Positions 7,701 to 25,048 of a DNA stretch of 35,862 bases are shown piece by piece. The DNA is taken from positions 1 to 35,862 of the forward strand of contig JAOZKH010000013.1 in the NCBI GenBank assembly GCA_029935405.1, written 5' to 3'. The translations under genes and the position numbers were made by a program. Positions within the stretch are counted from its first letter, which is position 1, and the number at the start of each line of letters is the position of its first letter. Below the pieces are notes generated by a model. It worked only from the letters and a program-made list of their open reading frames with translations. It made no database searches and was not told the origin of the DNA. The stretch is from Vallitaleaceae bacterium (GTDB lineage: Bacteria > Bacillota > Clostridia > Lachnospirales > Vallitaleaceae).

Positions 7701-7749
7701 TTTCTTCCTCCATTATAATTTCTTCTAATACTATCTACCTAACTATATA

Positions 7750-7765
7750 TGCAATTATCATGCCA
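7750..7765 (-). promoter_or_regulatory. Sigma-54 (-24/-12) promoter for ptb-iorA-iorB-buk
   Basis: On the minus strand the sequence reads TTGGCATGATAATTGCATA. This matches the sigma-54 consensus TGGCACG-N4-TTGCW except for one C-to-T change, with exact GG-to-GC spacing. The GG is at 7763-7764 and the GC at 7751-7752, so transcription should start near 7740, about 40 bases before the ptb start. The nearby PrpR-like enhancer-binding protein gene is the expected activator. Confidence 0.85.
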
Positions 7766-7824
7766 ACTTTTTATATTCTATGATAACTACGTTGAACGGG
7801 ATGCATTCGTTTTCAAACTACAAG

Positions 7825-7870
7825 CAAAAGCAAACACATGTCAATTAAAGTTGACGTATGTTTGCTTTTG
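7825..7870. promoter_or_regulatory. 20-bp dyad: possible enhancer site or yczE terminator
   Basis: Arms CAAAAGCAAACACATGTCAA and TTGACGTATGTTTGCTTTTG flank a 6-base loop and match at 18 of 20 positions; as minus-strand RNA 19 of 20 pairs form, one of them G-U. The centre is about 95 bp upstream of the sigma-54 -12 element, a normal distance for an enhancer-binding-protein site. It also follows the stop of the minus-strand YczE-like gene, so it could be a terminator with a poor U tract. Both roles are possible. Confidence 0.6.
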
Positions 7871-7938
7871 TTAACAGTTTATCTATTTTCCCGAGTTGAA
7901 ACTCCCTTTATTTCTCCAAAATTTATTGCAAAACAAGT

Positions 7939-8580
7939 TTAGTTACTCGCTATATCACTAATCACAAATACTTTATCAAACCAATTCATAAGAATACCAA
8001 TTGTAGGTCCAATTGTTAATGCAGATATTAATGTACCAATAGAAATTCCTCGTAGTTCACCAAAAAACACCAAACTAAGAATTACTGCTACACTGCACAT
8101 AACAATGTCAAACCCTAACTTGAATCGACTTAATTTTATCCCTAATTTAGCTGATACTTCTCTTACAAACACGTCAAACGGTAGAATTGGTAACTGTGAT
8201 CGATAAAAGAATACAAGTCCTGCTGAAATAGTAACAATGGATATAACAAAAAAACTACCCCTAAGCATATGTCCTGTTAGATTAACATCTTTCATCACAT
8301 AAGCAAAAAAATCAATTGTATACCCAAACACTACAGATGTGCCAAAGGACATTAAATATCTTGCATCAAATTTTCGAAGCACTATAATCGTTAACAAGAA
8401 TACAATTCCTTGAACACTATAATTAAAAACCCCAAAGGACACTGTTAAAAATCTCTGACTCAAAACATAAGAAGGACTTGTTGCAACGGTTACACCATAG
8501 TTAGCTTTTACCGCAAGTATAATACCAAAACTTAGCAATAATAGTCCCAGTACAAAAGATATATGTTTATTAAGCTTCAT
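7939..8580 (-). CDS. YczE/YitT-like integral membrane protein
   Basis: This 213-residue protein is very hydrophobic, with five or six predicted membrane spans. It begins MKLNKHISFVLGLLLLSFGIILAVKANYGV, and the region FRLGFD-like (SRFKLGFDI) with GISIGTLISALTIGPTIG near the C-terminus is typical of the YczE/YyaS/YitT membrane family (DUF6198-like), whose function is not established. An AGGAG site precedes the ATG. It is divergent from the GntR gene, with 109 bases between the two starts, a common arrangement for a regulator and its target. A role in export or uptake of fermentation acids or amino acids is only a guess from context. Confidence 0.75.
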   Translation of the reverse strand: MKLNKHISFVLGLLLLSFGIILAVKANYGVTVATSPSYVLSQRFLTVSFGVFNYSVQGIVFLLTIIVLRKFDARYLMSFGTSVVFGYTIDFFAYVMKDVNLTGHMLRGSFFVISIVTISAGLVFFYRSQLPILPFDVFVREVSAKLGIKLSRFKLGFDIVMCSVAVILSLVFFGELRGISIGTLISALTIGPTIGILMNWFDKVFVISDIASN

Positions 8581-8613
8581 TTTGATCTCCTCGTTCTTCT
8601 ATTCTTTTAAACA

Positions 8614-8642
8614 TTGCATTTTTAAATCTCAATGTGTATAAT
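8614..8642 (+). promoter_or_regulatory. Sigma-A promoter of the GntR gene
   Basis: TTGCAT at 8614-8619 and TATAAT at 8637-8642 are separated by exactly 17 bases, giving a near-consensus vegetative promoter. Transcription would start near 8650, with a leader of about 40 bases to the GntR start. Confidence 0.8.
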
Positions 8643-8689
8643 ATTTATAAACACGAAAGCAAATAATTTCATTTTGATGAGGTGATAAT

Positions 8690-9322
8690 ATGTCAAATAA
8701 AAATAAAAACAAAAATGATAATGTACAAAAAATTTATGCGGATTTAAAATCCAAAATATTAAGCGGCAAACTTAAACATGATGACAGACTAATAGAAGTC
8801 ACAACTGCTAAAAGTTACGGCGCTAGTAGAATTCATGCAAAAGAGGCTTTTCGTTTACTAGAGAGCGAACGTTTAGTCAAACACATGCCCAATCGAGGTT
8901 TTATTGTTCGAGGTGTCACCTCAGACATGATTAATGAAATAGTCGAAATCCGTCAAGCATTAGAAAATGTAATCTTTAAAGAAATTATTAAAACTGCAAG
9001 TGATAAGGACCTTCACGATTTGACCAGGCTAGCTAAACGATTCGAAGTATTTGTACATAACGATATGATTGAAGATGCACTTCACGAATTAGATGTATTA
9101 TACGCAAGGGTATACTCTTTATCTGAATACAAAAGAATCATTAAGATTTTAAGTCAATATGCTGATTATATCGGTTTAGTTCGTAATATGACTATCAAAA
9201 CCAAAGCGGATCTAGAAGAAGGTGTTATAAACTTTAACAACTTAGTGGGCGCTCTTAACGATAGAGATACTGAAGAACTAGAACGCCAATTAGCACTGCG
9301 ACACGCTCATTTTAAAAATTAA
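8690..9322 (+). CDS. GntR-family regulator with FCD-type effector domain
   Basis: This 210-residue regulator has an N-terminal winged helix (about 12-78; IYADLKSKILSGKL, then ASRIHAKEAFRLLESERLVKHMPNRGFIV) followed by an all-helical FCD-like domain (about 85-205). In most FCD domains a D-x-x-x-H and two later histidines bind a metal. Here the first position reads LDVLYARV (tyrosine where histidine is usual), and the mid-domain histidine is not visible; only the terminal RHAH remains. The start ATG follows GAGGTGATAAT. It is divergent from the YczE-like gene and convergent with ptb2, the two stop codons overlapping in a TTAA. Likely targets are the YczE-like gene or the neighbouring branched-chain acid genes. 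Confidence 0.88.
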   Translation: MSNKNKNKNDNVQKIYADLKSKILSGKLKHDDRLIEVTTAKSYGASRIHAKEAFRLLESERLVKHMPNRGFIVRGVTSDMINEIVEIRQALENVIFKEIIKTASDKDLHDLTRLAKRFEVFVHNDMIEDALHELDVLYARVYSLSEYKRIIKILSQYADYIGLVRNMTIKTKADLEEGVINFNNLVGALNDRDTEELERQLALRHAHFKN

Positions 9323-10236
9323 TTCACTTCATCATAACCGGCTAATATAACCGCCATTTTGATACTATTAAGTTTCGCCTCGCTATTGTCTGCTCTAGAC
9401 GTTATAACCACAGGCGCTGTCGCACCAACCACAACTCCTGAGTATTTCATGTTAGCAAAGTACACTAGTGACTTGAAGAATACATTCCCTACACCTAAGT
9501 CGTTTAATATAAGAATATCTGCTTTTCCTGCAACAGGATCTTCAATCCCCTTTATACGCGCCGCTTCTTCAGATACAGCATTATCAAGTCCAAAAGGACC
9601 TCCAACCGTAAATTCTTCACTATCTGCATACTTTTCCACAAGTTCTTTAGCGTGTACTGTTGATATAAGTTTTGCATTGACTTTTTCAATAGGAGCCACA
9701 ATTCCAACTTTAGGACAGACATTCCCAAGTGCGTGTGAAACACTTACTGCGTTTTTTATTATCACCTCTTTATCTTCTAACGAAGGTTCTATATTTATAG
9801 CAGGATCTGTCAAAAGAATTAGTCTATCATAACCTTCAATTTCACAAATAGATACATAACTTAGCAAGGCGTTTTTTCTCAATCCATTTTCTCTGCTTAG
9901 TATTGCTCTTAGAAATATTGAAGTATCTAAAAGTCCTTTCATAACAATATGAGCTTTTTTATCTTTAACTAATTTCACAGCGATTTCTGCCGCTTCTTTT
10001 TCCTCTTTACTATCAATTATCTCAAAACTACTTATATTTAATTTATTATTATTGGCAATTTTAATTATATTTTCTTCATTTCCTACTAAAATTGCATTAA
10101 TCAAATTTAACTCTTTTGCTTCACAAATCGCTTCAAGAACATGCAATTCATCTGCTGCTGCAACTGCCATTACTTTTCTTTCATTTATTCCTTTTTCACT
10201 TATAATCTTATCAATTTCAGCATATTTTCTTATCAT
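9319..10236 (-). CDS. ptb: Phosphate acyl(butyryl)transferase, second copy
   Basis: This 305-residue protein is a second member of the phosphate butyryltransferase family. It keeps VMAVAAADELHVLEAICEAKE at the N-terminus, IVMKGLLDTSIFLRAILSRENGLR in the middle and the GVVVGATAPVVITSRADNSEAKLNSI C-terminus. It shares the overall plan of the copy at 6789 but is clearly diverged from it. It lies 56 bases after the second butyrate kinase on the same strand; the kinase comes first, the reverse of the order in the other module. Divergent neighbours encode branched-chain aminotransferase and a 2-oxoacid oxidoreductase, so isobutyryl-, isovaleryl- or 2-methylbutyryl-CoA are the probable substrates. 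Its stop overlaps the convergent GntR stop. Confidence 0.92.
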   Translation of the reverse strand: MIRKYAEIDKIISEKGINERKVMAVAAADELHVLEAICEAKELNLINAILVGNEENIIKIANNNKLNISSFEIIDSKEEKEAAEIAVKLVKDKKAHIVMKGLLDTSIFLRAILSRENGLRKNALLSYVSICEIEGYDRLILLTDPAINIEPSLEDKEVIIKNAVSVSHALGNVCPKVGIVAPIEKVNAKLISTVHAKELVEKYADSEEFTVGGPFGLDNAVSEEAARIKGIEDPVAGKADILILNDLGVGNVFFKSLVYFANMKYSGVVVGATAPVVITSRADNSEAKLNSIKMAVILAGYDEVN

Positions 10237-10292
10237 TTGTTTTGCTGTCTCCTTTAATCTTTGATTTTCAAGTAGTTTACTTTCAAACGAGT

Positions 10293-11357
10293 TTACCCAT
10301 AAGTTTTAATAGCTTCAAGTCCATCAAGGACACGTACTACTCCTTCTTCAAGGGCTTTTAATTCATCTTCACCTGGCACAATAAAAAGTGGCGCTAAAAA
10401 CGATACTCTATCTTCTACCGCTTTAATTATTTTCTTATCACGAGCTAATCCTCCAGTGATAACAATTCGATCAATTTCACCAGATAATGTTGCTGCAAGA
10501 GAACAAATCTCTTTAGAAAGCTTATATGTAAATCCATTAACAACTCTCTGCCAATCTAAGTTAGTCTCTGCGCCGGTCATAACTAATTTCATATCCGTTG
10601 TACCTGTATGCGCATAAAATCCACCTTTTCCCACAAGCATACGATCAATTTCCTTTTTAGTATATTTACCTGAAAAACATAACTCAGCTAATTGTTTTGA
10701 CGGTAGACTTCCTGCTCGTTCTGGAGAAAACGGACCTTCTTCTAAGGCATTATTTACATCAACAACTCTACCTTTCATGTGGGCTCCAACTGAAACACCA
10801 CCACCTAGATGAGCAACAATAAAGTTACCTTTCTCATATTCTATTCCCATATCAGCCGCCGCCTTTTTAGCTACCGCTTTTTGATTCAATGCATGAAATG
10901 CACTAATTCTAGAAATTTCAGGCAATCCTGTATATCTAGCCTCATCAATCATTTCATCTACTACTACAGGGTTAACTGTATAAGCAGGTTTATTATATTT
11001 CTTTCCTAATCTATCCGCAATAATTGCACCTAAGTTACTAGCATGATCACCGTAAGTCGAATTGCTCAAGTCATCGAGCATTGCTTGACTAACTGAATAC
11101 GTGCCTCCTTGCAATGGTTTAAGGAGCCCTCCTCTTCCAACAAATGCATCTACTAATGCAAGCTCTACTTTTTCCTTCTCAAGAATATCATCAATAAATT
11201 CAAAGCGATAATCTAACTGATCTGCTGCTTTTTCAAACTTTCTAATCTCTTCGACATTGTGAGCTATGCTCTTATCGAATACTAATTTTCCACTATCAAA
11301 TAGTGCAATTTTTGTTGATGTAGATCCAGGGTTAATAGCAAGTATTACGTAATCCAT
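10293..11357 (-). CDS. buk: Butyrate (branched-chain acid) kinase, second copy
   Basis: This 354-residue ASKHA acyl kinase has LAINPGSTSTKIALFDS at the start, VGRGGLLKPLQGGTYSV, AHLGGGVSVGAH, EGPFSPERAGSLP and the late VITGGLARDK loop, all in the positions seen in butyrate kinases. A GAGGAGGTCC ribosome site precedes the ATG. It leads the buk2-ptb2 pair and diverges from the aminotransferase gene across a 170-base AT-rich region with inverted and direct repeats. In context it should make ATP from isobutyryl-, isovaleryl- or 2-methylbutyryl-phosphate in oxidative branched-chain amino acid fermentation. Butyrate itself remains possible. Confidence 0.95.
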   Translation of the reverse strand: MDYVILAINPGSTSTKIALFDSGKLVFDKSIAHNVEEIRKFEKAADQLDYRFEFIDDILEKEKVELALVDAFVGRGGLLKPLQGGTYSVSQAMLDDLSNSTYGDHASNLGAIIADRLGKKYNKPAYTVNPVVVDEMIDEARYTGLPEISRISAFHALNQKAVAKKAAADMGIEYEKGNFIVAHLGGGVSVGAHMKGRVVDVNNALEEGPFSPERAGSLPSKQLAELCFSGKYTKKEIDRMLVGKGGFYAHTGTTDMKLVMTGAETNLDWQRVVNGFTYKLSKEICSLAATLSGEIDRIVITGGLARDKKIIKAVEDRVSFLAPLFIVPGEDELKALEEGVVRVLDGLEAIKTYG

Positions 11358-11406
11358 AAAGGACCTCCTCTGATTAATTGATTTTTTTACAATTTTTTAA
11401 AAAAAT

Positions 11407-11474
11407 ATTGTTAACATCTTTACAAATTGCTAACAATGTATTATCATATTAACATAACTATAATAACATAACTA
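11407..11474. promoter_or_regulatory. Divergent control region of buk2 and aminotransferase
   Basis: ATTGTTA (11407-11413) and TAACAAT (11431-11437) form an inverted repeat 17 bases apart. An 11-base direct repeat TAACATAACTA follows at 11450-11460 and 11464-11474. A TATAAT at 11459-11464 could be the -10 of the plus-strand aminotransferase promoter, but I see no good -35. The repeated TAACA/TGTTA half-sites suggest one regulator serving both directions. Confidence 0.5.
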
Positions 11475-11527
11475 AGTTTTGTATTCAACATCTAGATATT
11501 ATGAAACATCAATCATAGGAGGTAATA

Positions 11528-12589
11528 ATGGAGATACTATTTAATGAAAGAAGCGTTTTAAAAACAAAGCCCCATCCTAGCGAATTAGGCTTTGGCAAGG
11601 AATTTACAGATTATATGTTTATTATGAATTATGAAGAAGGAAAAGACTGGTTTGATCCTAGAATTGTTCCCTACGAAAAAATTCAAATTGAACCTTCTGC
11701 AATGGTTTTCCATTATGCGCAAGCTGATTTTGAAGGTATGAAAGCATATAAAACCACCTCAGGAAATATAAATCTATTTAGACCTGAGATGAACATGGAA
11801 AGATTAAATCAATCTAACGAAAGAATTTGTATTCCTAAGTTTGACGGAAAATTTGTCTTGTCAGCTATTAAAAAGCTTATTGAAATTGAAAAAGACTGGA
11901 TTCCAGAAGCTCCTGATACGGCACTCTACATCAGACCTTTTATTATTGCAACAGATCCATTTTTAGGCGTTAGACCATCTCTTACATATCAATTAATGGT
12001 TATATTATCACCTGTAGGAGCATATTACAAAGAAGGTATTAACCCTGTAAGTATCTATGTTGAAACAGATTATGTTAGAGCTGTAAGAGGTGGCGTTGGT
12101 AATGCAAAAGTTGCCGGCAACTATGCAGCAAGTATTAAAGCACAGATGGAAGCTAAGGCAAAAGGATTTGCACAAGTACTTTGGCTTGACGCTGTAGAGA
12201 GAAAGTACGTAGAAGAAGTTGGCACCATGAATATATTCTTTAATATAGATGGCACCATCATTACGCCTAAGCTTAGTGGAAGTATTCTACCTGGAATAAC
12301 AAGAAATTCAGTTATAACTTTCCTAAAAGACAAAGGTTATACAGTAGAAGAAAGAAAAATAACTATTGACGAAGTTTTTACCGCTTCACATGAAGGCAAG
12401 TTAAAAGAAGTCTTTGGAACAGGCACCGCTGCTGTTATATCACCTGTTGGAAAACTTTCTTATTATAATGAACTTATCGAAATTAACGATAATAAAATAG
12501 GCGAAACTTGCAAATTAATTTACGACAATATCACCGGCATTCAAAACGGAACAGTAGAAGACAAATTCAATTGGATTGTCACCATATAG
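11528..12589 (+). CDS. ilvE: Branched-chain amino acid aminotransferase
   Basis: This 353-residue fold-type IV PLP aminotransferase interconverts Leu, Ile and Val with their 2-oxoacids using 2-oxoglutarate. The family signature is clear: YAQADFEGMKAYKT, NMERLNQSNERICIP, YIRPFIIATDPFLGVRPS, the PLP lysine within GVGNAKVAGNYAAS and the EVGTMNIFF region, ending with GTGTAAVISPVG. Length matches the class II BCAT group. A GGAGGTAATA ribosome site precedes the ATG. It comes before a four-subunit 2-oxoacid oxidoreductase and opposite an acyl kinase pair, so a catabolic role is more likely than biosynthesis. No T-box leader was found. Confidence 0.95.
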   Translation: MEILFNERSVLKTKPHPSELGFGKEFTDYMFIMNYEEGKDWFDPRIVPYEKIQIEPSAMVFHYAQADFEGMKAYKTTSGNINLFRPEMNMERLNQSNERICIPKFDGKFVLSAIKKLIEIEKDWIPEAPDTALYIRPFIIATDPFLGVRPSLTYQLMVILSPVGAYYKEGINPVSIYVETDYVRAVRGGVGNAKVAGNYAASIKAQMEAKAKGFAQVLWLDAVERKYVEEVGTMNIFFNIDGTIITPKLSGSILPGITRNSVITFLKDKGYTVEERKITIDEVFTASHEGKLKEVFGTGTAAVISPVGKLSYYNELIEINDNKIGETCKLIYDNITGIQNGTVEDKFNWIVTI

Positions 12590-12612
12590 ATAATTCACAA
12601 ATTAATGAATTT

Positions 12613-12690
12613 TATAGTTTTATGATTTTATAACTCCATGATTTTGCATATTAATAGTTTTACAAATTTATGATTTTACAGCTTTATTTA
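12613..12690 (+). repeat. Degenerate AT-rich direct repeats before vorD
   Basis: The 116-base gap between the aminotransferase and ferredoxin genes is built of imperfect copies of AGTTTTAYRATTTTA-like units; ATGATTTT occurs three times. No terminator or clear promoter is visible, so the downstream genes are probably co-transcribed with the aminotransferase gene. Confidence 0.45.
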
Positions 12691-12705
12691 TAGAAAGGCG
12701 ATAAA

Positions 12706-12915
12706 ATGAAAAAAGTAATATTTAAACACGATGAGTGCAAAGGCTGCGGACTTTGTGCGGCAGTTTGTCCGAAAAAAATTATATTTTTTGATAAATCAAT
12801 CAATCCTAACGGATTTCATCCTGCAACTGTAGATGAACAGGACAAGTGTATTTCATGTGGTTTCTGCGCCACAATGTGCCCTGATTTGATTATTACTGTG
12901 AGAAAAGAGGTATAG
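12706..12915 (+). CDS. vorD: 2-oxoacid:ferredoxin oxidoreductase, ferredoxin (delta) subunit
   Basis: This 69-residue protein is a two-cluster [4Fe-4S] ferredoxin subunit. Both cluster motifs are intact: CKGCGLCAAVCPK in the N-terminal half and CISCGFCATMCPD in the C-terminal half. It carries electrons from the thiamine-bearing core to free ferredoxin. It opens the D-A-B-C gene order common in four-subunit branched-chain or 2-oxoglutarate oxidoreductases, with a one-base gap to the alpha gene. GAAAGGCGATAAA provides the ribosome site. Vor (branched chain) is preferred over Kor (2-oxoglutarate) only because of the neighbouring aminotransferase and acyl-kinase genes. Confidence 0.92.
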   Translation: MKKVIFKHDECKGCGLCAAVCPKKIIFFDKSINPNGFHPATVDEQDKCISCGFCATMCPDLIITVRKEV

Positions 12916-12916
12916 T

Positions 12917-13987
12917 ATGAAAAAAGTGTTAATGAAGGGCAACGAAGCCATCTCAGAAGCTGCAATTCAAGCAGGATGCAAGTTCTTTTTTGGCTATCCT
13001 ATTACTCCACAAAATGAAATTCCGGCATACATGGCAAAGCATCTACCAAAAGCTGGTGGACGCTACACACAAGCTGAATCTGAAATTGCTGCTATTAATA
13101 TGGTTTACGGAGCAGCCGGTTGTGGTGCAAGAGTTATGACTTCTTCATCAAGTCCTGGAATGAGCCTGAAGCAAGAAGGAATTTCATATCTTGCAGGTGC
13201 ACAGTTACCTTGTGTTATTGTAAATATTATGAGAAGTGGTCCTGGCTTAGGTGGAATATTACCAGCACAATCTGATTACTTTCAAGCTGTAAAAGGCGGA
13301 GGACACGGTGATTACAATCTTATCGTATACGCTCCTTCAACTGTTCAAGAAGCTGTTACTTTAACCATGGAAGCATTTGATGTTGCCGACTTATATCTAA
13401 CTCCAGTTATGATTCTTGGTGATGGTATATTAGGACAAGTTATGGAACCTGTTGAGTTTATCCCTCCTAAGAAAAGGAAACTTCCAAAAAAAACATGGGC
13501 AACTACCGGTAATGATGGTTCAAGACCTAACAATCTTATCAACTCACTATATATCGAAGCTGACGTACTATACGAACGCACATTAGCACAATACAAAAAA
13601 TATGATTTAATTAAGGAAAAAGAAACCAGGTACGAACTATATAACACAGCAGATGCAGAAGTTATTATTGCAGCATATGGATCAACTGCACGAATTGTAA
13701 AAAGCGTGATTGATGGCCTATTAGAAGAAGGCATAAGAATCGGACTAATTCGCCCCATCACTGTATGGCCATTCCCATATACTATATTTGAAGAATATGC
13801 ATCAAGTGATAAAGTTAAGAAATTTTTAACTATTGAAATGAGCATGGGACAAATGATAGAAGATGTTAAACTTGGAGTTAATGGTAAAAAACCAGTTGAT
13901 TTCTTTGGGAGAACAGGTGGAAAAATTCCGACATATGATGAAATCAAAGGAAAAGTTATAGAAGTAATTAGGGAGGTAACAGCATGA
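12917..13987 (+). CDS. vorB: 2-oxoacid:ferredoxin oxidoreductase, alpha subunit
   Basis: This 356-residue subunit contains the pyrimidine-binding and transketolase-C-like domains. It begins KVLMKGNEAISEAAIQAGC, has the substrate-region motif GYPITPQNEIPAYMA, then ESEIAAINMVYGAAGCGARVMTSSSSPG, and ends with the second domain (AYGSTARIVKSVIDGL). It lacks the thiamine diphosphate motif, which is on the next gene. Its last four bases overlap the beta gene. Symbol choice (VorB or KorA) varies between naming schemes. The likely reaction is 3-methyl-2-oxobutanoate and related branched 2-oxoacids to acyl-CoA. Confidence 0.93.
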   Translation: MKKVLMKGNEAISEAAIQAGCKFFFGYPITPQNEIPAYMAKHLPKAGGRYTQAESEIAAINMVYGAAGCGARVMTSSSSPGMSLKQEGISYLAGAQLPCVIVNIMRSGPGLGGILPAQSDYFQAVKGGGHGDYNLIVYAPSTVQEAVTLTMEAFDVADLYLTPVMILGDGILGQVMEPVEFIPPKKRKLPKKTWATTGNDGSRPNNLINSLYIEADVLYERTLAQYKKYDLIKEKETRYELYNTADAEVIIAAYGSTARIVKSVIDGLLEEGIRIGLIRPITVWPFPYTIFEEYASSDKVKKFLTIEMSMGQMIEDVKLGVNGKKPVDFFGRTGGKIPTYDEIKGKVIEVIREVTA

Positions 13988-14721
13988 AAACAGTTTTTGA
14001 AAAAACCAAAGGCTTAACAGACAAAACATTTCATTATTGTCCAGGGTGTACACATGGTATAGTTCATAGACTTGTAGCCGAATCTCTTGTAGAATTAAAC
14101 GTTTTAGACAAAGCAATAGGCGTCGCACCTGTAGGTTGCTCAGTTTTTGCATATGAATATTTCAACTGTGATATGCAACAAGCATCTCACGGAAGAGCTC
14201 CTGCAGTTGCTACAGGAATAAAACGTGTTTTACCTGATAGTATAGTTTTCACTTATCAAGGCGACGGTGATTTAGCTTCTATTGGATCAGCTGAAATCAT
14301 GCATGCTGCTGCTAGAGGTGAAAACATTACTGTCATATATGTAAATAATGCAATTTTTGGAATGACTGGCGGCCAAATGGCTCCTACCACTCTTATTGGA
14401 CAAGTTACAACCACAAGTCCTAACGGAAGAGACCCGCTTACTGACGGTTATCCAATTAATATGTCTGAAATGTTGGCTCAACTTATTGGTTCTACTTATA
14501 TTGAACGTGTTTCAATAACCAATGTAAAAAATGTTAAACACGCAAAAAAAGCAATTAAAAAAGCTTTTGAAAACCAGATTAATAATAAGGGATTTTCTAT
14601 GATTGAGATACTTTCCACTTGTCCTACTAACTGGGGAATGACCCCATTAGATTCTCTTAAGTGGTTAGACGAGAAGATGCAAAGTGTTTTCCCTTTAGGT
14701 GTTTTTAAGGAGGTAAAATAA
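13984..14721 (+). CDS. vorA: 2-oxoacid:ferredoxin oxidoreductase, beta (TPP) subunit
   Basis: This 245-residue thiamine-pyrophosphate subunit has HYCPGCTHGIVHRL, the APVGCSVF loop, and the classical TPP-binding motif beginning GDGDLASIG and ending VNN about 25 residues later, followed by FGMTGGQMAPTT. The TNWGMTP segment near the C-terminus is typical of branched-chain 2-oxoacid oxidoreductases, supporting Vor over pyruvate oxidoreductase. It overlaps the alpha gene by four bases (ATGA) and the gamma gene by one (TAATG), so the three subunits should be made by coupled translation. Confidence 0.93.
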   Translation: MKTVFEKTKGLTDKTFHYCPGCTHGIVHRLVAESLVELNVLDKAIGVAPVGCSVFAYEYFNCDMQQASHGRAPAVATGIKRVLPDSIVFTYQGDGDLASIGSAEIMHAAARGENITVIYVNNAIFGMTGGQMAPTTLIGQVTTTSPNGRDPLTDGYPINMSEMLAQLIGSTYIERVSITNVKNVKHAKKAIKKAFENQINNKGFSMIEILSTCPTNWGMTPLDSLKWLDEKMQSVFPLGVFKEVK

Positions 14722-15278
14722 TGGAAAAAATGATACTTGCAGGTTTTGGTGGTCAAGGAATAATGAGCATGGGACAAATGATAGCCTACGCTGGAATGGT
14801 TGAAGATAAAAACGTAACATGGCTTCCTTCATACGGACCTGAGATGCGTGGCGGAACAGCTAATTGTAACGTTATTGTTTCAGATAAAGATATTGCTTCT
14901 CCAATAGTTGATCACGCATCAACAGTAATTGTAATGAACAAGCCATCACTTGAAAAATTCGAACACTATGTTGCTCCTGGAGGAAACCTTTATATTAATA
15001 GTTCCCTAATAGATCACAAAGTAAGCAGAACTGACATTCATGTACATTATATTCCAGCAAGCGATATAGCTGTAGAAATAGGCAATGTTAAGGTTGCAAA
15101 CATGGTTCTACTTGGTGCTTTGCTCAAAATCAGTAAAGTTATTACCGAGAAGTCTGTACTTGATGCTTTATCTAAAGTTCTTGGTTCAAGTAAAACTCAT
15201 CTCTTTGAGATTAACGAATTAGCACTTGAAAAAGGTGCCGCACTAGTTAGTAACACTAACCCAAATATAGCAATGTAA
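14721..15278 (+). CDS. vorC: 2-oxoacid:ferredoxin oxidoreductase, gamma subunit
   Basis: This 185-residue protein is the gamma subunit that binds CoA in this enzyme family. It opens MILAGFGGQGIMSMGQMIAYAG, followed by WLPSYGPEMRGGTANCNVIVSD, both diagnostic for the family. It is the last gene of the ilvE-vorDBAC run. Its stop is only five bases from the stop of the convergent FAD oxidase gene, and no terminator hairpin separates them, so the two operons may produce overlapping 3' ends. Confidence 0.94.
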   Translation: MEKMILAGFGGQGIMSMGQMIAYAGMVEDKNVTWLPSYGPEMRGGTANCNVIVSDKDIASPIVDHASTVIVMNKPSLEKFEHYVAPGGNLYINSSLIDHKVSRTDIHVHYIPASDIAVEIGNVKVANMVLLGALLKISKVITEKSVLDALSKVLGSSKTHLFEINELALEKGAALVSNTNPNIAM

Positions 15279-15283
15279 GCTTT

Positions 15284-16831
15284 TTAAAATATAACTCCGC
15301 TGTTAATTATTCCTTTCGTTTCAAGCAATGATTTTACTTTTTTCATCTCAATCAAGTCTTGTTCTGATAGCATATACTTTAACAGCGGATTTTTAAGTTT
15401 TCCAATACCGTGCTCTGCGGCTATTGAACCATTTAGCTTAACAACATGTTTAGCCCATTTTATAACGGTTTCTTTAGCTACTTGGTATTGTTTATAACTA
15501 TCTGGAATTAAATTAACATGCAAATGGTTATTACCAATATGTCCAAATATAATGCCTTCATAATTTTCTTCTTGAATTTCTTCTTTATACATGTTCAGAA
15601 CTTCATTTAAGTCCTTATTAAGAACTGCCATATCCGTTCCTATCTTATGTAATCTAACATCCATAAGTTTTCTTCTAGCTATTAAAATGTTAATACATTC
15701 AGGTACTGCATGCCTAATTTTTTTTAATTTATTGTAATCTGACGCCTCAAGTCCTAACCATTGCTCCTCTTTATTAATACCAAATACATCCATTTGATTC
15801 CATAACTGCTCCATAATTTCATCTAGTTGCTCATCTGATTCTAGATGAAATTCAAGATATATTCCTCCATCATAATCTGTTGATATTAACGGAAGTGCTT
15901 TTATCTCCATCTTATCCTCTCTAAATAAATTCAAAAGTTCAAAAGTTTTTTGATCAAAATATTCAATTGCACATAGATTTTGCAAGCCGCTCTCCCTTAG
16001 CCACTTTACAAAATCAGTCATTCTATTATCTTTATTCATAAACAACATAATTCCAAATATTATTTCTGGCTTATTAATAAGTCTTAATTCTACTTCCGTA
16101 ATAACACCTAAAATTCCTTCAGCACCAATAAAAAGATCTATTAAATCCATTTCTTCCTGATAAAATAGACCTACTACATCTTTTAATTGATTACAGTGTT
16201 CATGCCATGATGGTAGTGTTTTAATTTCAATATCAAATACCTTAGCTAAATCCAAATACTTGTACTGACCTCTTCTTATATTTATTTTTTTCGAAGGTGT
16301 TATCACACATATTGACTCCACAAACGCACGCACTGATCCATAGGCATACGAACAGGCCCCAGAGGCATCACAAGCCACCATTCCACCTATTGAAGCCAGT
16401 GTTTCTGTTGGATCTGTAGGAAACATCTTTGCCGACTCTTTTTTAAATTTTTTATATACCCTTATTGCTTCAGTATCCCAATCTGATATATTAATATTTT
16501 TACTAGTAATTATATCATTTAAATCTTTTAATAACACTCCAGCTTCAACTTTGATTGTATAATAATCCTTGTCTTTATTGTAAGACATATCTATAATTTT
16601 ATTCATTTTAGAAAGATTAATTATCGTTCCACCATCTGGTACGCCACCACCACAAATACCAGTTAACCCACCTTGAATAGTCATAGGAATATTATTAGAA
16701 TAACAATTATTAACTAGTTCTAGTACATCATCTGTACTATGACAAAAAACCAATTTATCTGCCTGACCTGTTAACAAAGATTCATCTTTTAAATAATCAG
16801 TATAATTTTCTAATTCTGTAATCACTTTCAT
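15284..16831 (-). CDS. GlcD/D-lactate-dehydrogenase-like FAD-linked oxidoreductase
   Basis: This 515-residue flavoprotein of the PCMH (FAD_binding_4) / FAD-oxidase C family oxidises 2-hydroxyacids in known relatives such as GlcD and Etf-linked lactate dehydrogenase. The N-terminal FAD domain shows IQGGLTGICGGGVPDGGTI and ASIGGMVACDASG; the C-terminal catalytic domain carries GHIGNNHLHVN and AAEHGIGKLK, whose histidines serve the hydroxyacid centre. It overlaps the EtfA gene by four bases, so its electrons probably go to this Etf pair, as in the LctBCD complex of acetogens. It is the last gene of the eight-gene operon. No Fe-S domain or partner GlcF is present. The substrate is not visible. 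Confidence 0.9.
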   Translation of the reverse strand: MKVITELENYTDYLKDESLLTGQADKLVFCHSTDDVLELVNNCYSNNIPMTIQGGLTGICGGGVPDGGTIINLSKMNKIIDMSYNKDKDYYTIKVEAGVLLKDLNDIITSKNINISDWDTEAIRVYKKFKKESAKMFPTDPTETLASIGGMVACDASGACSYAYGSVRAFVESICVITPSKKINIRRGQYKYLDLAKVFDIEIKTLPSWHEHCNQLKDVVGLFYQEEMDLIDLFIGAEGILGVITEVELRLINKPEIIFGIMLFMNKDNRMTDFVKWLRESGLQNLCAIEYFDQKTFELLNLFREDKMEIKALPLISTDYDGGIYLEFHLESDEQLDEIMEQLWNQMDVFGINKEEQWLGLEASDYNKLKKIRHAVPECINILIARRKLMDVRLHKIGTDMAVLNKDLNEVLNMYKEEIQEENYEGIIFGHIGNNHLHVNLIPDSYKQYQVAKETVIKWAKHVVKLNGSIAAEHGIGKLKNPLLKYMLSEQDLIEMKKVKSLLETKGIINSGVIF

Positions 16832-17748
16832 AAATCTAGCACCAACTTATAATCCTCTATAATTCCAATGTCAGCATAGTTAAATATTCTTGCGCCACTA
16901 TCCTTATTAATAGCAATGATTTTCTCCGAACTAAGTATTCCATTAATAAATGGTGTAGCTCCCGAAACACCTATACAAAGGCATACTTTTGGCGATACAA
17001 CTTTTCCTGTTTGACCAATAAGCTTATGTAGTGGTAACCAATTAAAATCGATAACCTTTTTGGTTCCTCCCACAACTGCACCAATAGACTTAGCATATTT
17101 TTCAATCTGTTGTACATTTTCTTTACATCCCACACCATATCCACAAACAATAACTATATCGGCTTTTGTAATACTCTCTTGTTCAACTATTTCTATGTAG
17201 TTACTTATAATAACCTTCTTTTCAATGCTATTTTCTAGTTCAATATATTTAACAGAAATTTTCTTAGAATAATCAATGTTTGATTTTATTGTTTTAAGAT
17301 TAGATCTAAATCCAATTATTACAGGTAATTCAACTTTGATAGAACAATTAATATTTCCACCATATACTGGTTTAGTAAGCATACTGTCCTTATGTTCAAA
17401 ATCAATACTTATTCCAACACAATCTAAATATCCATCCATTTTATATTTATAACATAGCTTTGGAATTATCAAATCTTTATTTTCTTTAGTAGCAACAATT
17501 AGAATTTCAGGTTTATTATTATCTATATATTGTTCAATTACTTTCAAATATTGTTCAACCTTATTGTATCCAATTCCTACTTTTTCTTTGGATTTATTAG
17601 GTTTTACAATAATAATATCAATATTACATTCTTCTAATTCTTCAGGCTTACAATTTGAGATAACTAAATCAATAGCTTTTTGTATTTCATTAGGTATTTC
17701 ACTAGGTATTCCCTCTATATTTCCATCACCGATTATACCGATTTTCAT
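16828..17748 (-). CDS. etfA: Divergent electron transfer flavoprotein alpha subunit
   Basis: This 306-residue protein is an EtfA by its C-terminal FAD domain: IVVCGYGVG-like start (IVIVCGYGVGC, usually GGRG), LIGQTGKVVSPKV, GVSGA and IIAINKDSGARIFNYADIGI. The N-terminal half is only weakly EtfA-like and rich in Lys, Ile and Asn. Two residues that contact the FAD in characterised Etfs are replaced: the arginine of GASR is Lys230 (GGTKKVID), and the histidine after SGAIQ is Phe267 (SGATPF). The threonine of QTGK is kept. It overlaps EtfB and the FAD oxidase gene by four bases each. It should carry FAD and electrons between the operon's dehydrogenases, probably with an altered redox potential. 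Confidence 0.88.
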   Translation of the reverse strand: MKIGIIGDGNIEGIPSEIPNEIQKAIDLVISNCKPEELEECNIDIIIVKPNKSKEKVGIGYNKVEQYLKVIEQYIDNNKPEILIVATKENKDLIIPKLCYKYKMDGYLDCVGISIDFEHKDSMLTKPVYGGNINCSIKVELPVIIGFRSNLKTIKSNIDYSKKISVKYIELENSIEKKVIISNYIEIVEQESITKADIVIVCGYGVGCKENVQQIEKYAKSIGAVVGGTKKVIDFNWLPLHKLIGQTGKVVSPKVCLCIGVSGATPFINGILSSEKIIAINKDSGARIFNYADIGIIEDYKLVLDL

Positions 17749-18569
17749 CCTATCGCACCTCGATTCTTAGAATACTCGAGTAATAATTCCTGTAATTGAT
17801 CCTGCAAACTCATATCTTCCCTACTTTGCCAATAAATACAGTGCTTATTAGTTTTATTGACTTTAAGCTCTACTATGTTCAAGAGATTTTTATTACTTTT
17901 CATAAGTTTTTTACTAATATGCAAACTTTCTTTAGGTATTATAACTTTGATTTCCTGTTTCTTTGCTTCCATTGTTTTTTTGAGTGTTGCCATTCTAAGG
18001 AATTTATTCCCTGACTGACTAACCGTAACTACAATCGGTCCTTTAACACTTATATGTTCAATACCTTCTTCTACTATGCGGCTCAAATGATATATTCCCT
18101 GTTTATATTCAATTTCAGTTACTAACGTAAAGCAAGGCCACCCTAGCTCTTTAGCTAGGAGTTGACCTGTTAATCCATGACTATAATTATCTGCCTGTCT
18201 TCCACATAGTACTAGCTCAGCATCTTTAGTATCTTCAATAACTGATGCTAACATTTTTGCTATTGCACTTGGCGTGTATTCAGCTTTTTCTACTACATCT
18301 ATTCTTATTGCTTTTTGTACTCCAACTGCCAAAGCTTTTCTAAGAATAGATTCTTTAGATTTATCACCAACTGTAATAACATGAGTATTGATCTTCTGTG
18401 CTTCATCGACTAATCTAAGCATTAATTCCAAAGCAGTTTCATCATAGGTATTCATTATTTTGTTAGCATAGCTAATATCAATACTTTTACCATCTTCTTG
18501 AATAAACCAATCGTCTGTTAATACCATATCTAAATCTTGCACTTGTTTAATACAGCTAATAATTGTCAT
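17745..18569 (-). CDS. etfB: Electron transfer flavoprotein beta subunit
   Basis: The open frame extends to a GTG at 18581, but GAGGAATGAC before the ATG at 18569 and the family start (IISCIKQVQD) favour 18569, giving about 274 residues. Family features are CIKQV at the start, NKIMNTYDETALE, VITVGDKSKESILRKALAVG and LCGRQADNYSHGLTGQLLAKELGWP. The recognition-loop leucine that docks partner dehydrogenases is kept (MATLKKTMEAKKQ). The loop usually DGG reads EEG here. The TGQ after the GRQ motif resembles non-bifurcating Etfs more than the VGP of bifurcating ones; that is a hint only. It sits between the two FAD oxidase genes, with EtfA downstream. Confidence 0.92.
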   Translation of the reverse strand: MTIISCIKQVQDLDMVLTDDWFIQEDGKSIDISYANKIMNTYDETALELMLRLVDEAQKINTHVITVGDKSKESILRKALAVGVQKAIRIDVVEKAEYTPSAIAKMLASVIEDTKDAELVLCGRQADNYSHGLTGQLLAKELGWPCFTLVTEIEYKQGIYHLSRIVEEGIEHISVKGPIVVTVSQSGNKFLRMATLKKTMEAKKQEIKVIIPKESLHISKKLMKSNKNLLNIVELKVNKTNKHCIYWQSREDMSLQDQLQELLLEYSKNRGAIG

Positions 18570-18584
18570 GTCATTCCTCACTTT

Positions 18585-20003
18585 TTAATCTTGTGGAATT
18601 AGAACACCTTGATTCATAATACCATTTGGATCAAATGCATGCTTTAGTTTTGTTAGCATCGGATAAGCTGATCCTAGTTCTTCTTTCATCCATTTTGTTC
18701 TGTAACGACCCACTCCGTGGTGATGTCCTATTGAACCATTATACTTAAGTGTCGTTTCTATAATAATACCAAATAATTGATCATATGTCTTCTGTGCCGC
18801 TTCAATTGTTGGTGCACACATAGCACCGAACATAAAGTAAATATTTGTTCCTTGCATATAACTGTGTGATGAGTGTCCTGTTACTGCAACAATATGTGAA
18901 ACTTCTGCTTTTACTCTTTCAATAACCTCATCATAGATTTTTCCTATATCAGACCACATTGCTGATATTTCACAAGTATCTGCAACTGCACCTTGTTTAG
19001 CGTACATATCAAGATGGTCACATATATCATTACGGTGTACTAACCATATTTCAAGTGGTTTACTTCCAAGTGGTCTTGCTCCATACTTAAGAGCTACTTC
19101 TTCTACAGCTTTTCCTTCTAAATTCGCAAAACCTTTTGGTCCTTCTGATAAAAATAACATAATGCCTTCATTTTCTTTAACAAATGGTCCATAACTTTCA
19201 GCCGCTTCTGTTTTATCATGTAACCTTGCAACAGCTGGTTTCCAGCCTGCTTGAACAATTTCCTTAATAATTGATAAACCTTTTGAAAAATCATCAATTG
19301 CAAAAGCTTGCATAACTCTTTCTGTAGCAAGTTTAAATATCTTTACAGTGACTTCTGTAATAACACCAAAAGCTCCTTCTGAACCTAACCAAATATGGCG
19401 AAGATCAGGGCCTGTTGACTTACGAGGATTATTTTTAATCTTAGTTAATTCACCACTTGGAAGTATGCCTTCTATTCCAACTAACAAATCTTCTATTCCG
19501 CCATATAATGTTGAAAATTGCCCAATACTTCTTGTTGCAACTAATCCACCCATTTGAGCCATTGGTAATGATTGTGGGAAATGTCCTGTTGTATATCCTT
19601 TTTTGTTAAGTGTCTCTTCTAGCACTTGTAATGGCACACCTGACTGAGCTGTAACCGTTAAATTTTCTTCATTAATCTCAATAATTTCATTCATTTCACT
19701 AAGATCAATAACAACACTATGTTCTGGTGTTTCAAGGCCTAAACAAACGCCTGACCCCCCAGTTCTTGGAATACTAACAATCTTTTCTTTGTTAATAAAC
19801 TCCATTACCTTTATCGCTTCTTCTTTAGTATGTATTTTTAAAATACATGTTGCTAACTCTTTAGGTTCCCAACCAAAGTGCTTTTGCACCATTCTAAGAC
19901 CTGTAATATCAGTTGCATATTCTTGTAATATTGTAACTTCTGTTACCACTCTATCTTTGCCTAATACACTTTCAAAAAACTCTACAATTTTCACTTGTTC
20001 CAT
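18585..20003 (-). CDS. FAD-linked oxidase resembling alkyl-DHAP synthase
   Basis: This 472-residue PCMH-type flavoprotein has the FAD domain motifs PRTGGSGVCLGLETPEHSVV and MAQMGGLVATRSIGQFSTLYGG, then a C-terminal domain with VTGHSSHSYMQGTNIYFMF and GHHHGVGRYRTKWM. Those last two segments resemble alkyl-dihydroxyacetone-phosphate synthase more than GlcD, especially the HHH-GVG-R-W pattern. It could act on a dihydroxyacetone-phosphate derivative, an ether-lipid-like compound or a 2-hydroxyacid. It lies 23 bases after the DUF1667 gene and three before EtfB, so Etf is its probable electron acceptor. It is a different subfamily from the GlcD-like protein at the end of the operon, so the two are not simple duplicates. 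Confidence 0.85.
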   Translation of the reverse strand: MEQVKIVEFFESVLGKDRVVTEVTILQEYATDITGLRMVQKHFGWEPKELATCILKIHTKEEAIKVMEFINKEKIVSIPRTGGSGVCLGLETPEHSVVIDLSEMNEIIEINEENLTVTAQSGVPLQVLEETLNKKGYTTGHFPQSLPMAQMGGLVATRSIGQFSTLYGGIEDLLVGIEGILPSGELTKIKNNPRKSTGPDLRHIWLGSEGAFGVITEVTVKIFKLATERVMQAFAIDDFSKGLSIIKEIVQAGWKPAVARLHDKTEAAESYGPFVKENEGIMLFLSEGPKGFANLEGKAVEEVALKYGARPLGSKPLEIWLVHRNDICDHLDMYAKQGAVADTCEISAMWSDIGKIYDEVIERVKAEVSHIVAVTGHSSHSYMQGTNIYFMFGAMCAPTIEAAQKTYDQLFGIIIETTLKYNGSIGHHHGVGRYRTKWMKEELGSAYPMLTKLKHAFDPNGIMNQGVLIPQD

Positions 20004-20026: not shown

Positions 20027-20377
20027 TTAGATTATTGTTCTAGTTGCAATTATATCCACACCGGTTTCACCGATATTCTTAACAATTATGTCACCTCTTA
20101 AAACTGGGGTATCTACTGTTATTTTGTACAACTCCTTTGCCAATTCAATTAACCTTGATTTTGGAATCTCGTCAGTACTGATAACAGGTAATCTCTTAAT
20201 TTTAGCGTTTTCAATTTTTACCGTTGTAGTTATCATTCGCTTAGGGTCATTATATTCATTAACACCAAAAACCCTACCTCTTTTACATTGATTTCCATTC
20301 ACCTGCACTTCATTGTCTTTTTCATCTACCGATAAAATACAACTTACAGGACATACGATACATGTGAACTTTTTCAT
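20027..20377 (-). CDS. DUF1667 iron-sulfur-type small protein
   Basis: This 116-residue protein matches the DUF1667 family commonly found beside GlpA/GlpB-like oxidoreductases. It has four cysteines in a CIVCPVSC and GNQCKRG arrangement, suitable for an Fe-S cluster, followed by a conserved-looking tail with RMITTTVKIEN and LPVISTDEIPK. It has no membrane span, so unlike GlpC it is not an anchor. It overlaps the GlpB-like gene by four bases. It probably serves as an electron-carrying subunit of the flavoprotein complex; its exact role is not established. Confidence 0.82.
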   Translation of the reverse strand: MKKFTCIVCPVSCILSVDEKDNEVQVNGNQCKRGRVFGVNEYNDPKRMITTTVKIENAKIKRLPVISTDEIPKSRLIELAKELYKITVDTPVLRGDIIVKNIGETGVDIIATRTII

Positions 20378-23416: not shown

Positions 23417-24964
23417 TCACTTTCTAATCTTTAGTTCTATCATTTTCTTATATACCGGTTGTAAAGATTTATAAGTTAATTCATATACTTCTTCAAAAAG
23501 TTGATTATATCTTCTTGCAACTATCGCTTCTGGCTTGTAGGTTTTCGTTATTTGAATCATTCTATTACTAGCTTCGGTAATCCCTTGATAAACGCCAAGA
23601 TATACATAACTAAGTATTGCTGCTCCAAGCCCTGTTGTTTCATGAGATTGCACCACATATACTTCTTTATCAAAAATATTAGCTAATACCTGACACAATA
23701 TTTTACTTTGGGACCCACCTCCTGAGAGACCTATTCTTTGAACTTCTTTATGTGTTTTTTTCTCAATACTTCTTATTCCTTCTTTAATTGAATAAGCCAA
23801 CCCTTCCACTAGCGCTCTATAAAAATGAATTCTTGTATGTTTATCATTTAAACCAATAAGTGTTCCTGAAGCTCCCGGACGTCTTACATCACTCATCCAA
23901 AAAGGTTGCATTAGGAGTCCATCTGCTCCAGGGGCTACCTTATCTAGCTTTTCATTAAGTATGCGTTCAATACTTATCTGTCTATCATTAGATTCTTTTT
24001 TTTCAAGTTCAGCAAACTCCTCGATAAACCAGTTTATCAACCAAAACCCTCTTGTTATACCAAGTTCTGGATTATACTTACCTTTTATTGCAGCCGGATA
24101 AACTGTGCCGTATTTATATAATGGCATATGAGTATCTGTTGTCGTCTGTACCGTTACCATCGAGCCTAATGATACGCTTACTGTTGTTTCGTCTAAGCAA
24201 CCAATACCAAGTGTTTCACATGCTTTATCTGACCCACTTGCAACAACCGGTAATCCAACTGGTAAACCAAGTAACTTCCCACTTTCTTCTGTAAGATTTC
24301 CTATTAAAGAACCCGGTTCAACAAGTTCAAACAAATGTTCTTTATCTACATGAAATACTTTTCCTTCTATATCAGTCTTTTTAGCCCAATCTTGCCGTTT
24401 TGCACTAAAAGGGATATAACCACTTGCTGCTGTGCGAGAATCCTTATACTGACCAGTGAGTTTGTAATTAATATAAGTTGATATAAACAGTAATTTATGA
24501 ACTTTTGCCATGATTTCAGGCTCATTCATCTTCACCCAATGATAAGGACAACCTCTATTATAACTGTCTACAATATTCCAAACTTTCATTAATTTATATG
24601 CTTTTTTTTGCATTTTTGTGATGTTATAATTTTTATCTGCTTTTCTTGTATCCATCCAACTTATTGCCTTTTTAAGTGGTTTCCCATCTTTGTCTACAAA
24701 AACACTAGTACTTCGTTGAGATGCTAATGTTAATGCCACAATATTAGCCATTATTTCTGGCTTCTGTTTTCGAAATTTTTGTACCACTTCACATGCACTA
24801 TCCCAAAAAATATCAGCATCCATCTCGATAAATCCTTCATCGTTCATTTCATACTTAGGGTACTTAACTTTATCTACACCTAGCAACACTCCACTTGCAT
24901 CGTATACAATACCTCTCATACTCTGCGTACCACAATCAAGTACAAATACATATCCTGTCTCCAA
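23417..24964 (-). CDS. FGGY-family carbohydrate or polyol kinase
   Basis: The open frame reaches an ATG at 25048, but that codon lies in the -35 element of the operon promoter. A GGGAGG seven bases before the TTG at 24964 marks the real start, giving about 515 residues beginning (M)ETGYVFVLDCGTQSMRG. FGGY features are the N-terminal phosphate loop, SQRSTSVFVDKDG, ISWMDTRK, ASGSDKACETLG and the C-terminal signature RIGLSGGGSQSKILCQVLANIF. Relatives include glycerol kinase and xylulokinase; specificity is not readable. As first gene of the operon, it probably phosphorylates the pathway substrate before oxidation by the GlpA/GlpB-like proteins. No dedicated transporter is in the operon. Confidence 0.88.
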   Translation of the reverse strand: METGYVFVLDCGTQSMRGIVYDASGVLLGVDKVKYPKYEMNDEGFIEMDADIFWDSACEVVQKFRKQKPEIMANIVALTLASQRSTSVFVDKDGKPLKKAISWMDTRKADKNYNITKMQKKAYKLMKVWNIVDSYNRGCPYHWVKMNEPEIMAKVHKLLFISTYINYKLTGQYKDSRTAASGYIPFSAKRQDWAKKTDIEGKVFHVDKEHLFELVEPGSLIGNLTEESGKLLGLPVGLPVVASGSDKACETLGIGCLDETTVSVSLGSMVTVQTTTDTHMPLYKYGTVYPAAIKGKYNPELGITRGFWLINWFIEEFAELEKKESNDRQISIERILNEKLDKVAPGADGLLMQPFWMSDVRRPGASGTLIGLNDKHTRIHFYRALVEGLAYSIKEGIRSIEKKTHKEVQRIGLSGGGSQSKILCQVLANIFDKEVYVVQSHETTGLGAAILSYVYLGVYQGITEASNRMIQITKTYKPEAIVARRYNQLFEEVYELTYKSLQPVYKKMIELKIRK

Positions 24965-24994
24965 CTTATTTCCTCCCGTATTCAGTCGAACATT

Positions 24995-25012
24995 CAGACG
25001 TCCGGACGTCTG
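24995..25012. promoter_or_regulatory. 18-bp perfect palindromic operator
   Basis: CAGACGTCCGGACGTCTG is a perfect 18-bp palindrome, GC-rich in an AT-rich region. It lies directly downstream of the -10 element at 25020-25025, covering the expected transcription start, where a bound repressor would block initiation. The matching regulator is not encoded next to this operon. Confidence 0.85.
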
Positions 25013-25019
25013 TGTGTTT

Positions 25020-25048
25020 ATAATAATCTTTTTTAATCTATTTGTCAA
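25020..25048 (-). promoter_or_regulatory. Sigma-A promoter of the eight-gene flavoprotein operon
   Basis: On the minus strand TTGACA (25043-25048) is followed by exactly 17 bases and TATTAT (25020-25025). This is a strong vegetative promoter. Transcription would begin near 25012-25014, with a leader of about 50 bases to the TTG start of the kinase gene. Confidence 0.88.

What the first reader, a model, noticed from the sequence alone, without database searches (positions are those of the whole stretch)
16948..17061. EtfA with two key flavin-contact residues replaced (Arg to Lys230, His to Phe267)
Aligned by eye to human EtfA, the arginine of GASR that stacks on FAD (Arg249) is Lys230 here, and the histidine of SGAIQH (His286) is Phe267. 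I read the codons as AAA and TTT. Both residues tune the flavin potential in characterised Etfs, while the QTGK threonine is kept. Together with the weak N-terminal half and the altered EtfB DGG loop, this Etf probably has a different redox potential, adapted to its unusual partners.
Basis: partly seen in the sequence, partly recalled or inferred. Interest (0 to 1): 0.68.

Follow-up and report, generated by a model that had tools for sequence, protein, structure and literature searches.

The report
Electron carrier with swapped flavin-contact residues
A bacterial electron-carrier protein (Etf) has two amino acids next to its flavin changed; one change is normal for Etfs that serve lactate-dehydrogenase-type enzymes, the other is rare but is kept in a distant relative with the same eight-gene operon.

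Summary
EtfA (16828-17748, minus strand) has Lys230 (AAA) at human Arg249 and Phe267 (TTT) at human His286, in a gapless alignment with Thr247 kept. The two changes are not equally unusual. Phe/Leu at 286 is normal for Etfs beside GlcD-type FAD dehydrogenases: Acetobacterium LctC has Phe, E. coli YgcQ has Leu, and all 27 non-His sequences among 113 sit beside a GlcD-type gene. Lys at 249 is rare (6/113), arose about three times, and occurs together with Phe286 only here and in L002, a distant relative with the same eight-gene operon. By tree and partners the protein is a YgcQ-type, not Lct-type, Etf. EtfB lacks the published bifurcation motifs, so the Etf is probably non-bifurcating. The genome shows no other EtfA, no acyl-CoA dehydrogenase, no ETF-quinone oxidoreductase and no GlcD-type dehydrogenase beyond the two in this operon. 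Best explanation: a dedicated Etf relay between the operon's own flavin dehydrogenases, with a less stabilised FAD semiquinone and lower potential. That shift is inferred from published work on equivalent residues, not measured. New variant of a known kind, moderate interest.

The parts
16828..17748 (-). etfA, Etf alpha subunit, 306 aa, YgcQ-type
   Evidence: PF00766 83.8 bits, PF01012 24 bits (below its cut-off); tree places it with YgcQ-type EtfA; Foldseek best hits all EtfA
17059..17061 (-). Lys230 codon AAA at the human Arg249 position
   Evidence: shared with L002
17008..17010 (-). Thr247 of GQTGK (human Thr266), kept
16948..16950 (-). Phe267 codon TTT at the human His286 position
   Evidence: Phe/Leu is the group norm
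16948..16965 (-). SGATPF motif (human SGAIQH), identical in L002
17745..18581 (-). etfB, Etf beta subunit, 278 aa; 4-bp overlap with etfA
   Evidence: PF01012 99.3 bits; lacks RxFxG, DGDTAQVGP and SPT
18162..18191 (-). EtfB loop DNYSHGLTGQ in place of bifurcating DGDTAQVGP; Tyr133 at the Gly123 position
   Evidence: criterion from PMC12630350
15284..16831 (-). GlcD2: FAD-linked D-2-hydroxyacid-dehydrogenase-like protein; 4-bp overlap with etfA
   Evidence: PF01565+PF02913; D-lactate dehydrogenases and LctD are nearest solved structures; GHxG and EHGIG kept
18585..20003 (-). GlcD1: YgcU-type FAD dehydrogenase
   Evidence: 43% identical to E. coli YgcU; alkyl-DHAP synthase is nearest solved structure
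20027..20377 (-). DUF1667 protein
   Evidence: PF07892
20374..21645 (-). Pyr_redox_2 flavoprotein (NAD/FAD oxidoreductase)
   Evidence: PF07992
21658..23409 (-). BON-DAO-BFD flavoprotein, glycerol-3-phosphate-oxidase-like
   Evidence: PF04972, PF01266, PF04324; NF033460 below cut-off
23417..25048 (-). FGGY-family sugar/polyol kinase
   Evidence: PF00370, PF02782; first gene of the shared operon in L002

Best explanation
The protein is the alpha subunit of a non-bifurcating, YgcQ-type Etf encoded in an eight-gene operon: FGGY kinase, DAO-BFD, Pyr_redox, DUF1667, YgcU-like GlcD1, EtfB, EtfA, GlcD2. Shown: Phe at 286 is a shared trait of Etfs whose genes sit beside GlcD-type (VAO/PCMH-fold) dehydrogenases. 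Lys at 249 is a rarer change shared by the window and one distant homologue with the same operon. Inferred: losing Arg249 and His286, both reported to stabilise the anionic semiquinone, gives an alpha-FAD with a lower and less separated pair of potentials, suited to two-electron transfer from low-potential hydroxyacid or polyol-type dehydrogenases. Inferred: with no other known Etf partner found in the genome, the Etf carries electrons between the operon's own flavoenzymes (GlcD1, GlcD2, and perhaps the DAO/Pyr_redox unit as the exit to NAD). The direction of flow and the substrates are unknown.
For: Residues verified. L002 has the same operon order and the same K/F pair at 35-37% EtfA identity. 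In a census of 113 EtfA, all 27 with F/L at 286 are beside a GlcD gene, against 7 of 86 with His; in loci found by EtfA query alone it is 7/7 against 3/80. Tree: window+L002 (99/95) inside a 15-row YgcQ-type set (100/97), all non-His. EtfB lacks the bifurcating FAD loop, NAD motif and SPT anchor. Own genome: one EtfA, no PF02770, no Fer4_ETF_QO, and only the operon's two PF02913 proteins. Literature: Arg, Ser and His contribute to the high FAD/semiquinone potential (PMC12630350). Two Etfs serving D-lactate/D-2HG dehydrogenases have low, closely spaced potentials: yeast Etf -101 mV two-electron (PMC6771786) and F. nucleatum Etf -70/-122 mV.
Against: No potential was measured. Those two Etfs keep the Arg and His (PMC12630350 states this for F. 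nucleatum; the yeast paper finds only one FAD-pocket difference from human), so low potential does not need these changes and the changes do not prove low potential. Lys keeps the positive charge and may replace Arg in part. The GlcD association rests on one or two evolutionary events (2 changes on the tree; a single origin not rejected, p-AU 0.115; only 2 independent pairs), and part of the sample was chosen by its GlcD1 neighbour. The genome is 97.8% complete, so missing partners could lie in gaps.
Confidence: 0.6

Rival explanations
1. The Lys is a docking adaptation and not a redox one. The equivalent Arg also lies where the Etf shuttle domain meets its dehydrogenase, so Lys was selected, or tolerated, because GlcD1 or GlcD2 presents a different surface.
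For: The FAD xylene edge meets the partner FAD in the D-state in A. woodii Ldh-EtfAB, where the interface must be adapted for each dehydrogenase (PMC9232219). Crystal structures of the equivalent Methylophilus R236 K/A/E/C mutants exist (3clu, 3clr, 3clt, 3cls). EtfA, EtfB and GlcD2 diverge much faster than GlcD1 in every pair compared, as expected if they co-evolve.
Against: The most direct published role of this Arg is semiquinone stabilisation of about 200 mV (title of Talfournier 2001, quoted in PMC6771786). No complex model was made here.
Confidence: 0.25
2. Neutral drift: in a fast-evolving Etf, Arg to Lys and His to Phe have little effect on potential.
For: EtfA is only 35-37% identical between two operons whose GlcD1 is 80% identical. 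Arg to Lys keeps the charge. Lys249 also occurs in L034-036 and L135.
Against: GTKK and SGATPF are kept unchanged between window and L002 despite that divergence. Arg249 is kept in all 13 other YgcQ-type EtfA, so the site is constrained.
Confidence: 0.12
3. This is a bifurcating or confurcating Etf like A. woodii LctBC, serving an Ldh.
For: LctC also has Phe at 286, and GlcD2 resembles LctD.
Against: EtfB has DNYSHGLTGQ for DGDTAQVGP, no RxFxG NAD motif and no SPT anchor. EtfA lacks the LctC GLSG loop and, at 306 aa, has no N-terminal ferredoxin domain. It lies outside the LctC clade.
Confidence: 0.03

Closest known systems
E. coli YgcQ/YgcR Etf with YgcU and YgcE
   Same: Same kind of cluster: YgcU-like dehydrogenase (43%), EtfB, EtfA and FGGY kinase; non-His at 286; grouped in the tree
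   Different: YgcQ keeps Arg at 249, has Leu at 286 and Ser at 266. E. coli has no GlcD2 or DAO/Pyr_redox/DUF1667 genes in its cluster. EtfA identity is only 23%.
Acetobacterium woodii LctBCD (Ldh-EtfAB, 7qh2)
   Same: Etf beside a GlcD-type dehydrogenase; Phe at the His286 position
   Different: LctC keeps Arg, has GLSG and an N-terminal ferredoxin domain; LctB has the bifurcating motifs. It lies in a separate clade.
Fusobacterium nucleatum and yeast Etfs serving D-lactate/D-2HG dehydrogenases
   Same: Non-bifurcating Etf fed by a GlcD-type dehydrogenase
   Different: F. nucleatum keeps Arg237, Ser254 and His274; the yeast FAD pocket matches human except for one beta-chain residue. Their acceptors are Bcd or ETF-QO; neither acceptor family was found in this genome.
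Methylophilus methylotrophus Etf R236K mutant (3clu)
   Same: An engineered Arg to Lys change at the equivalent residue, with a solved structure
   Different: Laboratory mutant with the rest of its pocket unchanged. Here the change is natural and is joined by H286F.

Membership tests
Etf alpha subunit (PF00766/PF01012) | C-terminal FAD-binding domain | tested here: met
   PF00766 83.8 bits against cut-off 27; domain II pLDDT about 84-94 and Foldseek best hits all EtfA
Etf alpha subunit (PF00766/PF01012) | N-terminal Etf domain over its curated cut-off | tested here: not met
   PF01012 24.0 vs 26.7 bits, E 3.7e-5: present but diverged
Bifurcating Etf | EtfB DGDTAQVGP flavin loop with invariant Gly | tested here: not met
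   DNYSHGLTGQ, Tyr at the Gly position; Ser in L002
Bifurcating Etf | EtfB NAD motif RxFxG and SPT anchor | tested here: not met
   both absent in window and L002
Bifurcating Etf | beta-FAD bound; NADH-dependent ferredoxin reduction | not testable with these tools
   needs purified protein
Lct-type confurcating Etf | EtfA in the LctC clade with GLSG and an N-terminal ferredoxin domain | tested here: not met
   GQTG, 306 aa, outside the 13-row LctC clade
YgcQR-type Etf | gene beside a YgcU-like dehydrogenase and FGGY kinase | tested here: met
   GlcD1 43% to YgcU over its whole length; FGGY kinase 23417-25048 25% to YgcE
YgcQR-type Etf | EtfA groups with YgcQ, non-His at 286 | tested here: met
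   15-row set 100/97, all F or L at 286; long branches warn of uncertainty inside it
YgcQR-type Etf | Arg at 249 (conserved in the group, though not known to define it) | tested here: not met
   Lys in window and L002; Arg in the other 13

The most novel reading that the evidence does not exclude
The operon is a closed flavin circuit: one dedicated Etf with a de-tuned, two-electron alpha-FAD moves electrons between two GlcD-type dehydrogenases (and the DAO/Pyr_redox unit), with no acyl-CoA dehydrogenase, quinone or bifurcation. One substrate would then be oxidised at the expense of a 2-oxoacid.
Probability: 0.2. Interest if true: 0.65.

Novelty: new variant of a known kind. Interest (0 to 1): 0.42.

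Why it matters
Arg249 and His286 are textbook tuning residues for the Etf flavin, studied mostly by mutagenesis. A natural Etf that lacks both, beside an LctC/YgcQ background that has already lost the His, gives a graded natural series (R/H, R/F, K/F) for testing how Etf potential is matched to partner dehydrogenases. The wider result is that His286 is lost in Etfs tied to GlcD-type dehydrogenases; this can be checked directly and would help annotate Etfs by partner. The function of the YgcQRU-type clusters appears to be unassigned, and papers on them were scarce in the library searched.

Tried and rejected
Close orthologues were sought in the same genus and family (22 genomes), order (295 and 392 genomes) and class (391 genomes). 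No hit as close as L002 appeared, and no EtfA aligned from these searches carried the K/F pair; the loci were not aligned. L002 came from genome contigs. A bifurcating reading was rejected on EtfB motifs. Read error or pseudogene was rejected because the ORF is intact, gene overlaps are kept, and L002 has the same residues. An independent-contrast test of His loss against GlcD neighbourhood was underpowered: 2 pairs, single origin not rejected. The idea that Lys249 goes with loss of the second Etf pair is not supported, since L124, L133 and E. coli YgcQ also lack it and keep Arg. The key mutagenesis paper on the two arginines (PMC8958531) was not held, and no paper giving measured effects of R249K was found.

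Full report
Observation. EtfA is the minus-strand ORF 16828-17748 (306 aa). Codons 230 and 267 are AAA and TTT. Against human Etf (1efv) the stretch from VGASR to SGAIQH aligns without gaps to VGGTK...SGATPF, so Lys sits at Arg249, Thr266 is kept and Phe sits at His286.

Is it real and retained? One locus, L002 (a Eubacteriales metagenome-assembled genome), is 35-37% identical in EtfA and has the same GTKK and SGATPF. It also carries the same eight genes in the same order: FGGY kinase, DAO-BFD, Pyr_redox, DUF1667, GlcD1, EtfB, EtfA, GlcD2. Identities between the two operons are 80% (GlcD1), 70% (Pyr_redox), 68% (kinase), 62% (DAO), 44-49% (EtfB), 35-37% (EtfA) and 38-41% (GlcD2). The Etf and GlcD2 diverge fast, yet the two residues are kept. 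The same slow-GlcD1, fast-Etf pattern holds in all other relatives compared.

How unusual is each residue? In 113 non-identical EtfA sequences, Lys at 249 occurs in 6, Phe/Leu at 286 in 27, and both together only in the window and L002. All 27 non-His sequences lie beside a GlcD-type FAD-oxidase gene; 7 of 86 His sequences do. Some loci were fetched because of their GlcD1 neighbour, so the subset found by EtfA query is a fairer test: 7/7 against 3/80. A. woodii LctC has Phe and E. coli YgcQ has Leu. So the His change is ordinary for this kind of partner and the Arg to Lys change is the distinctive one.

Phylogeny. A 58-row tree with positions 249 and 286 masked puts window+L002 together (99/95) within a 15-row YgcQ-type set (100/97), all non-His. 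The LctC set (13 rows) is separate and all Phe. The tree needs 2 changes for His loss and 3 for Arg to Lys (window+L002; L034-036; L135). A single origin of His loss is not rejected (p-AU 0.115), and only 2 independent pairs exist, so the GlcD association is striking but evolutionarily thin. Long branches within the YgcQ-type set make its inner order uncertain.

Bifurcation. Published markers of bifurcating EtfB are DGDTAQVGP with an invariant Gly, RxFxG and SPT (PMC9232219; PMC12630350). The window has DNYSHGLTGQ with Tyr at the Gly position and lacks the other two; L002 also lacks them. Many relatives carry a second EtfBA pair after GlcD2 that does have the DGDT-type loop; the window and L002 do not have this second pair.

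Partners. GlcD1 is 43% identical to E. coli YgcU. GlcD2 is a D-2-hydroxyacid-dehydrogenase-like protein with GHxG and EHGIG kept. In the window's genome (97.8% complete) there is one EtfA, no acyl-CoA dehydrogenase (PF02770), no ETF-quinone oxidoreductase domain, and only these two FAD-oxidase_C proteins. The Etf most likely works with its own operon.

Mechanism. Shown: the residues, their distribution, the operon, and the absence of other known partners from the assembly. Inferred: lower semiquinone stabilisation and a lower first potential. Support is that Arg, Ser/Thr and His are reported to raise the FAD/semiquinone potential (PMC12630350), and that the Methylophilus Arg gives about 200 mV of semiquinone stabilisation (title cited in PMC6771786). 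A. woodii Ldh-EtfAB is argued to need lower alpha-FAD potentials than Bcd-EtfAB (PMC9232219). Against it, the F. nucleatum and yeast Etfs reach low potentials while keeping these residues. A structure of the equivalent Arg to Lys mutant exists (3clu), and a docking role for this residue is a live rival.

Structure. AlphaFold2 with an 11-sequence alignment gives mean pLDDT 73, with domain II (residues 191-306, holding K230 and F267) at about 84-94. The 19 best Foldseek hits are Etf alpha-type chains, 7qh2 LctC first. Global TM-scores are low, as expected if the two domains are turned relative to each other; no ligand or complex was modelled.

Verdict. Observation confirmed, interpretation partly supported. 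New variant of a known kind, interest 0.42.

Noticed in passing
L117, L120, L121, L126, L127, L129, L130, L132, L134: Relatives carry two different EtfBA pairs in one cluster: a YgcQ-type pair beside the YgcU-like GlcD1 and a second pair with a DGDT-type (bifurcating-like) EtfB loop beside GlcD2. This suggests an electron path through two Etfs in series.
   Followed up: partly
L127:4231-6003 and 7403-9217; L128:5356-7122: EtfB and EtfA appear fused into a single ORF of about 590-605 aa.
   Followed up: partly
window 15284-20003: GlcD1 is strongly conserved while EtfA, EtfB and GlcD2 diverge fast in every pair compared; cause unknown.
   Followed up: partly
window 9319-15278: Beside the operon: a phosphotransacylase-like gene, an acetate/butyrate-kinase-like gene, a class IV aminotransferase and a three-gene 2-oxoacid:ferredoxin oxidoreductase, looking like a branched-chain amino acid fermentation cluster.
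   Followed up: no
L034-L036 (L143, L144): A separate Etf lineage with Lys at 249 but His at 286 and no GlcD neighbour detected; partner not identified.
   Followed up: no
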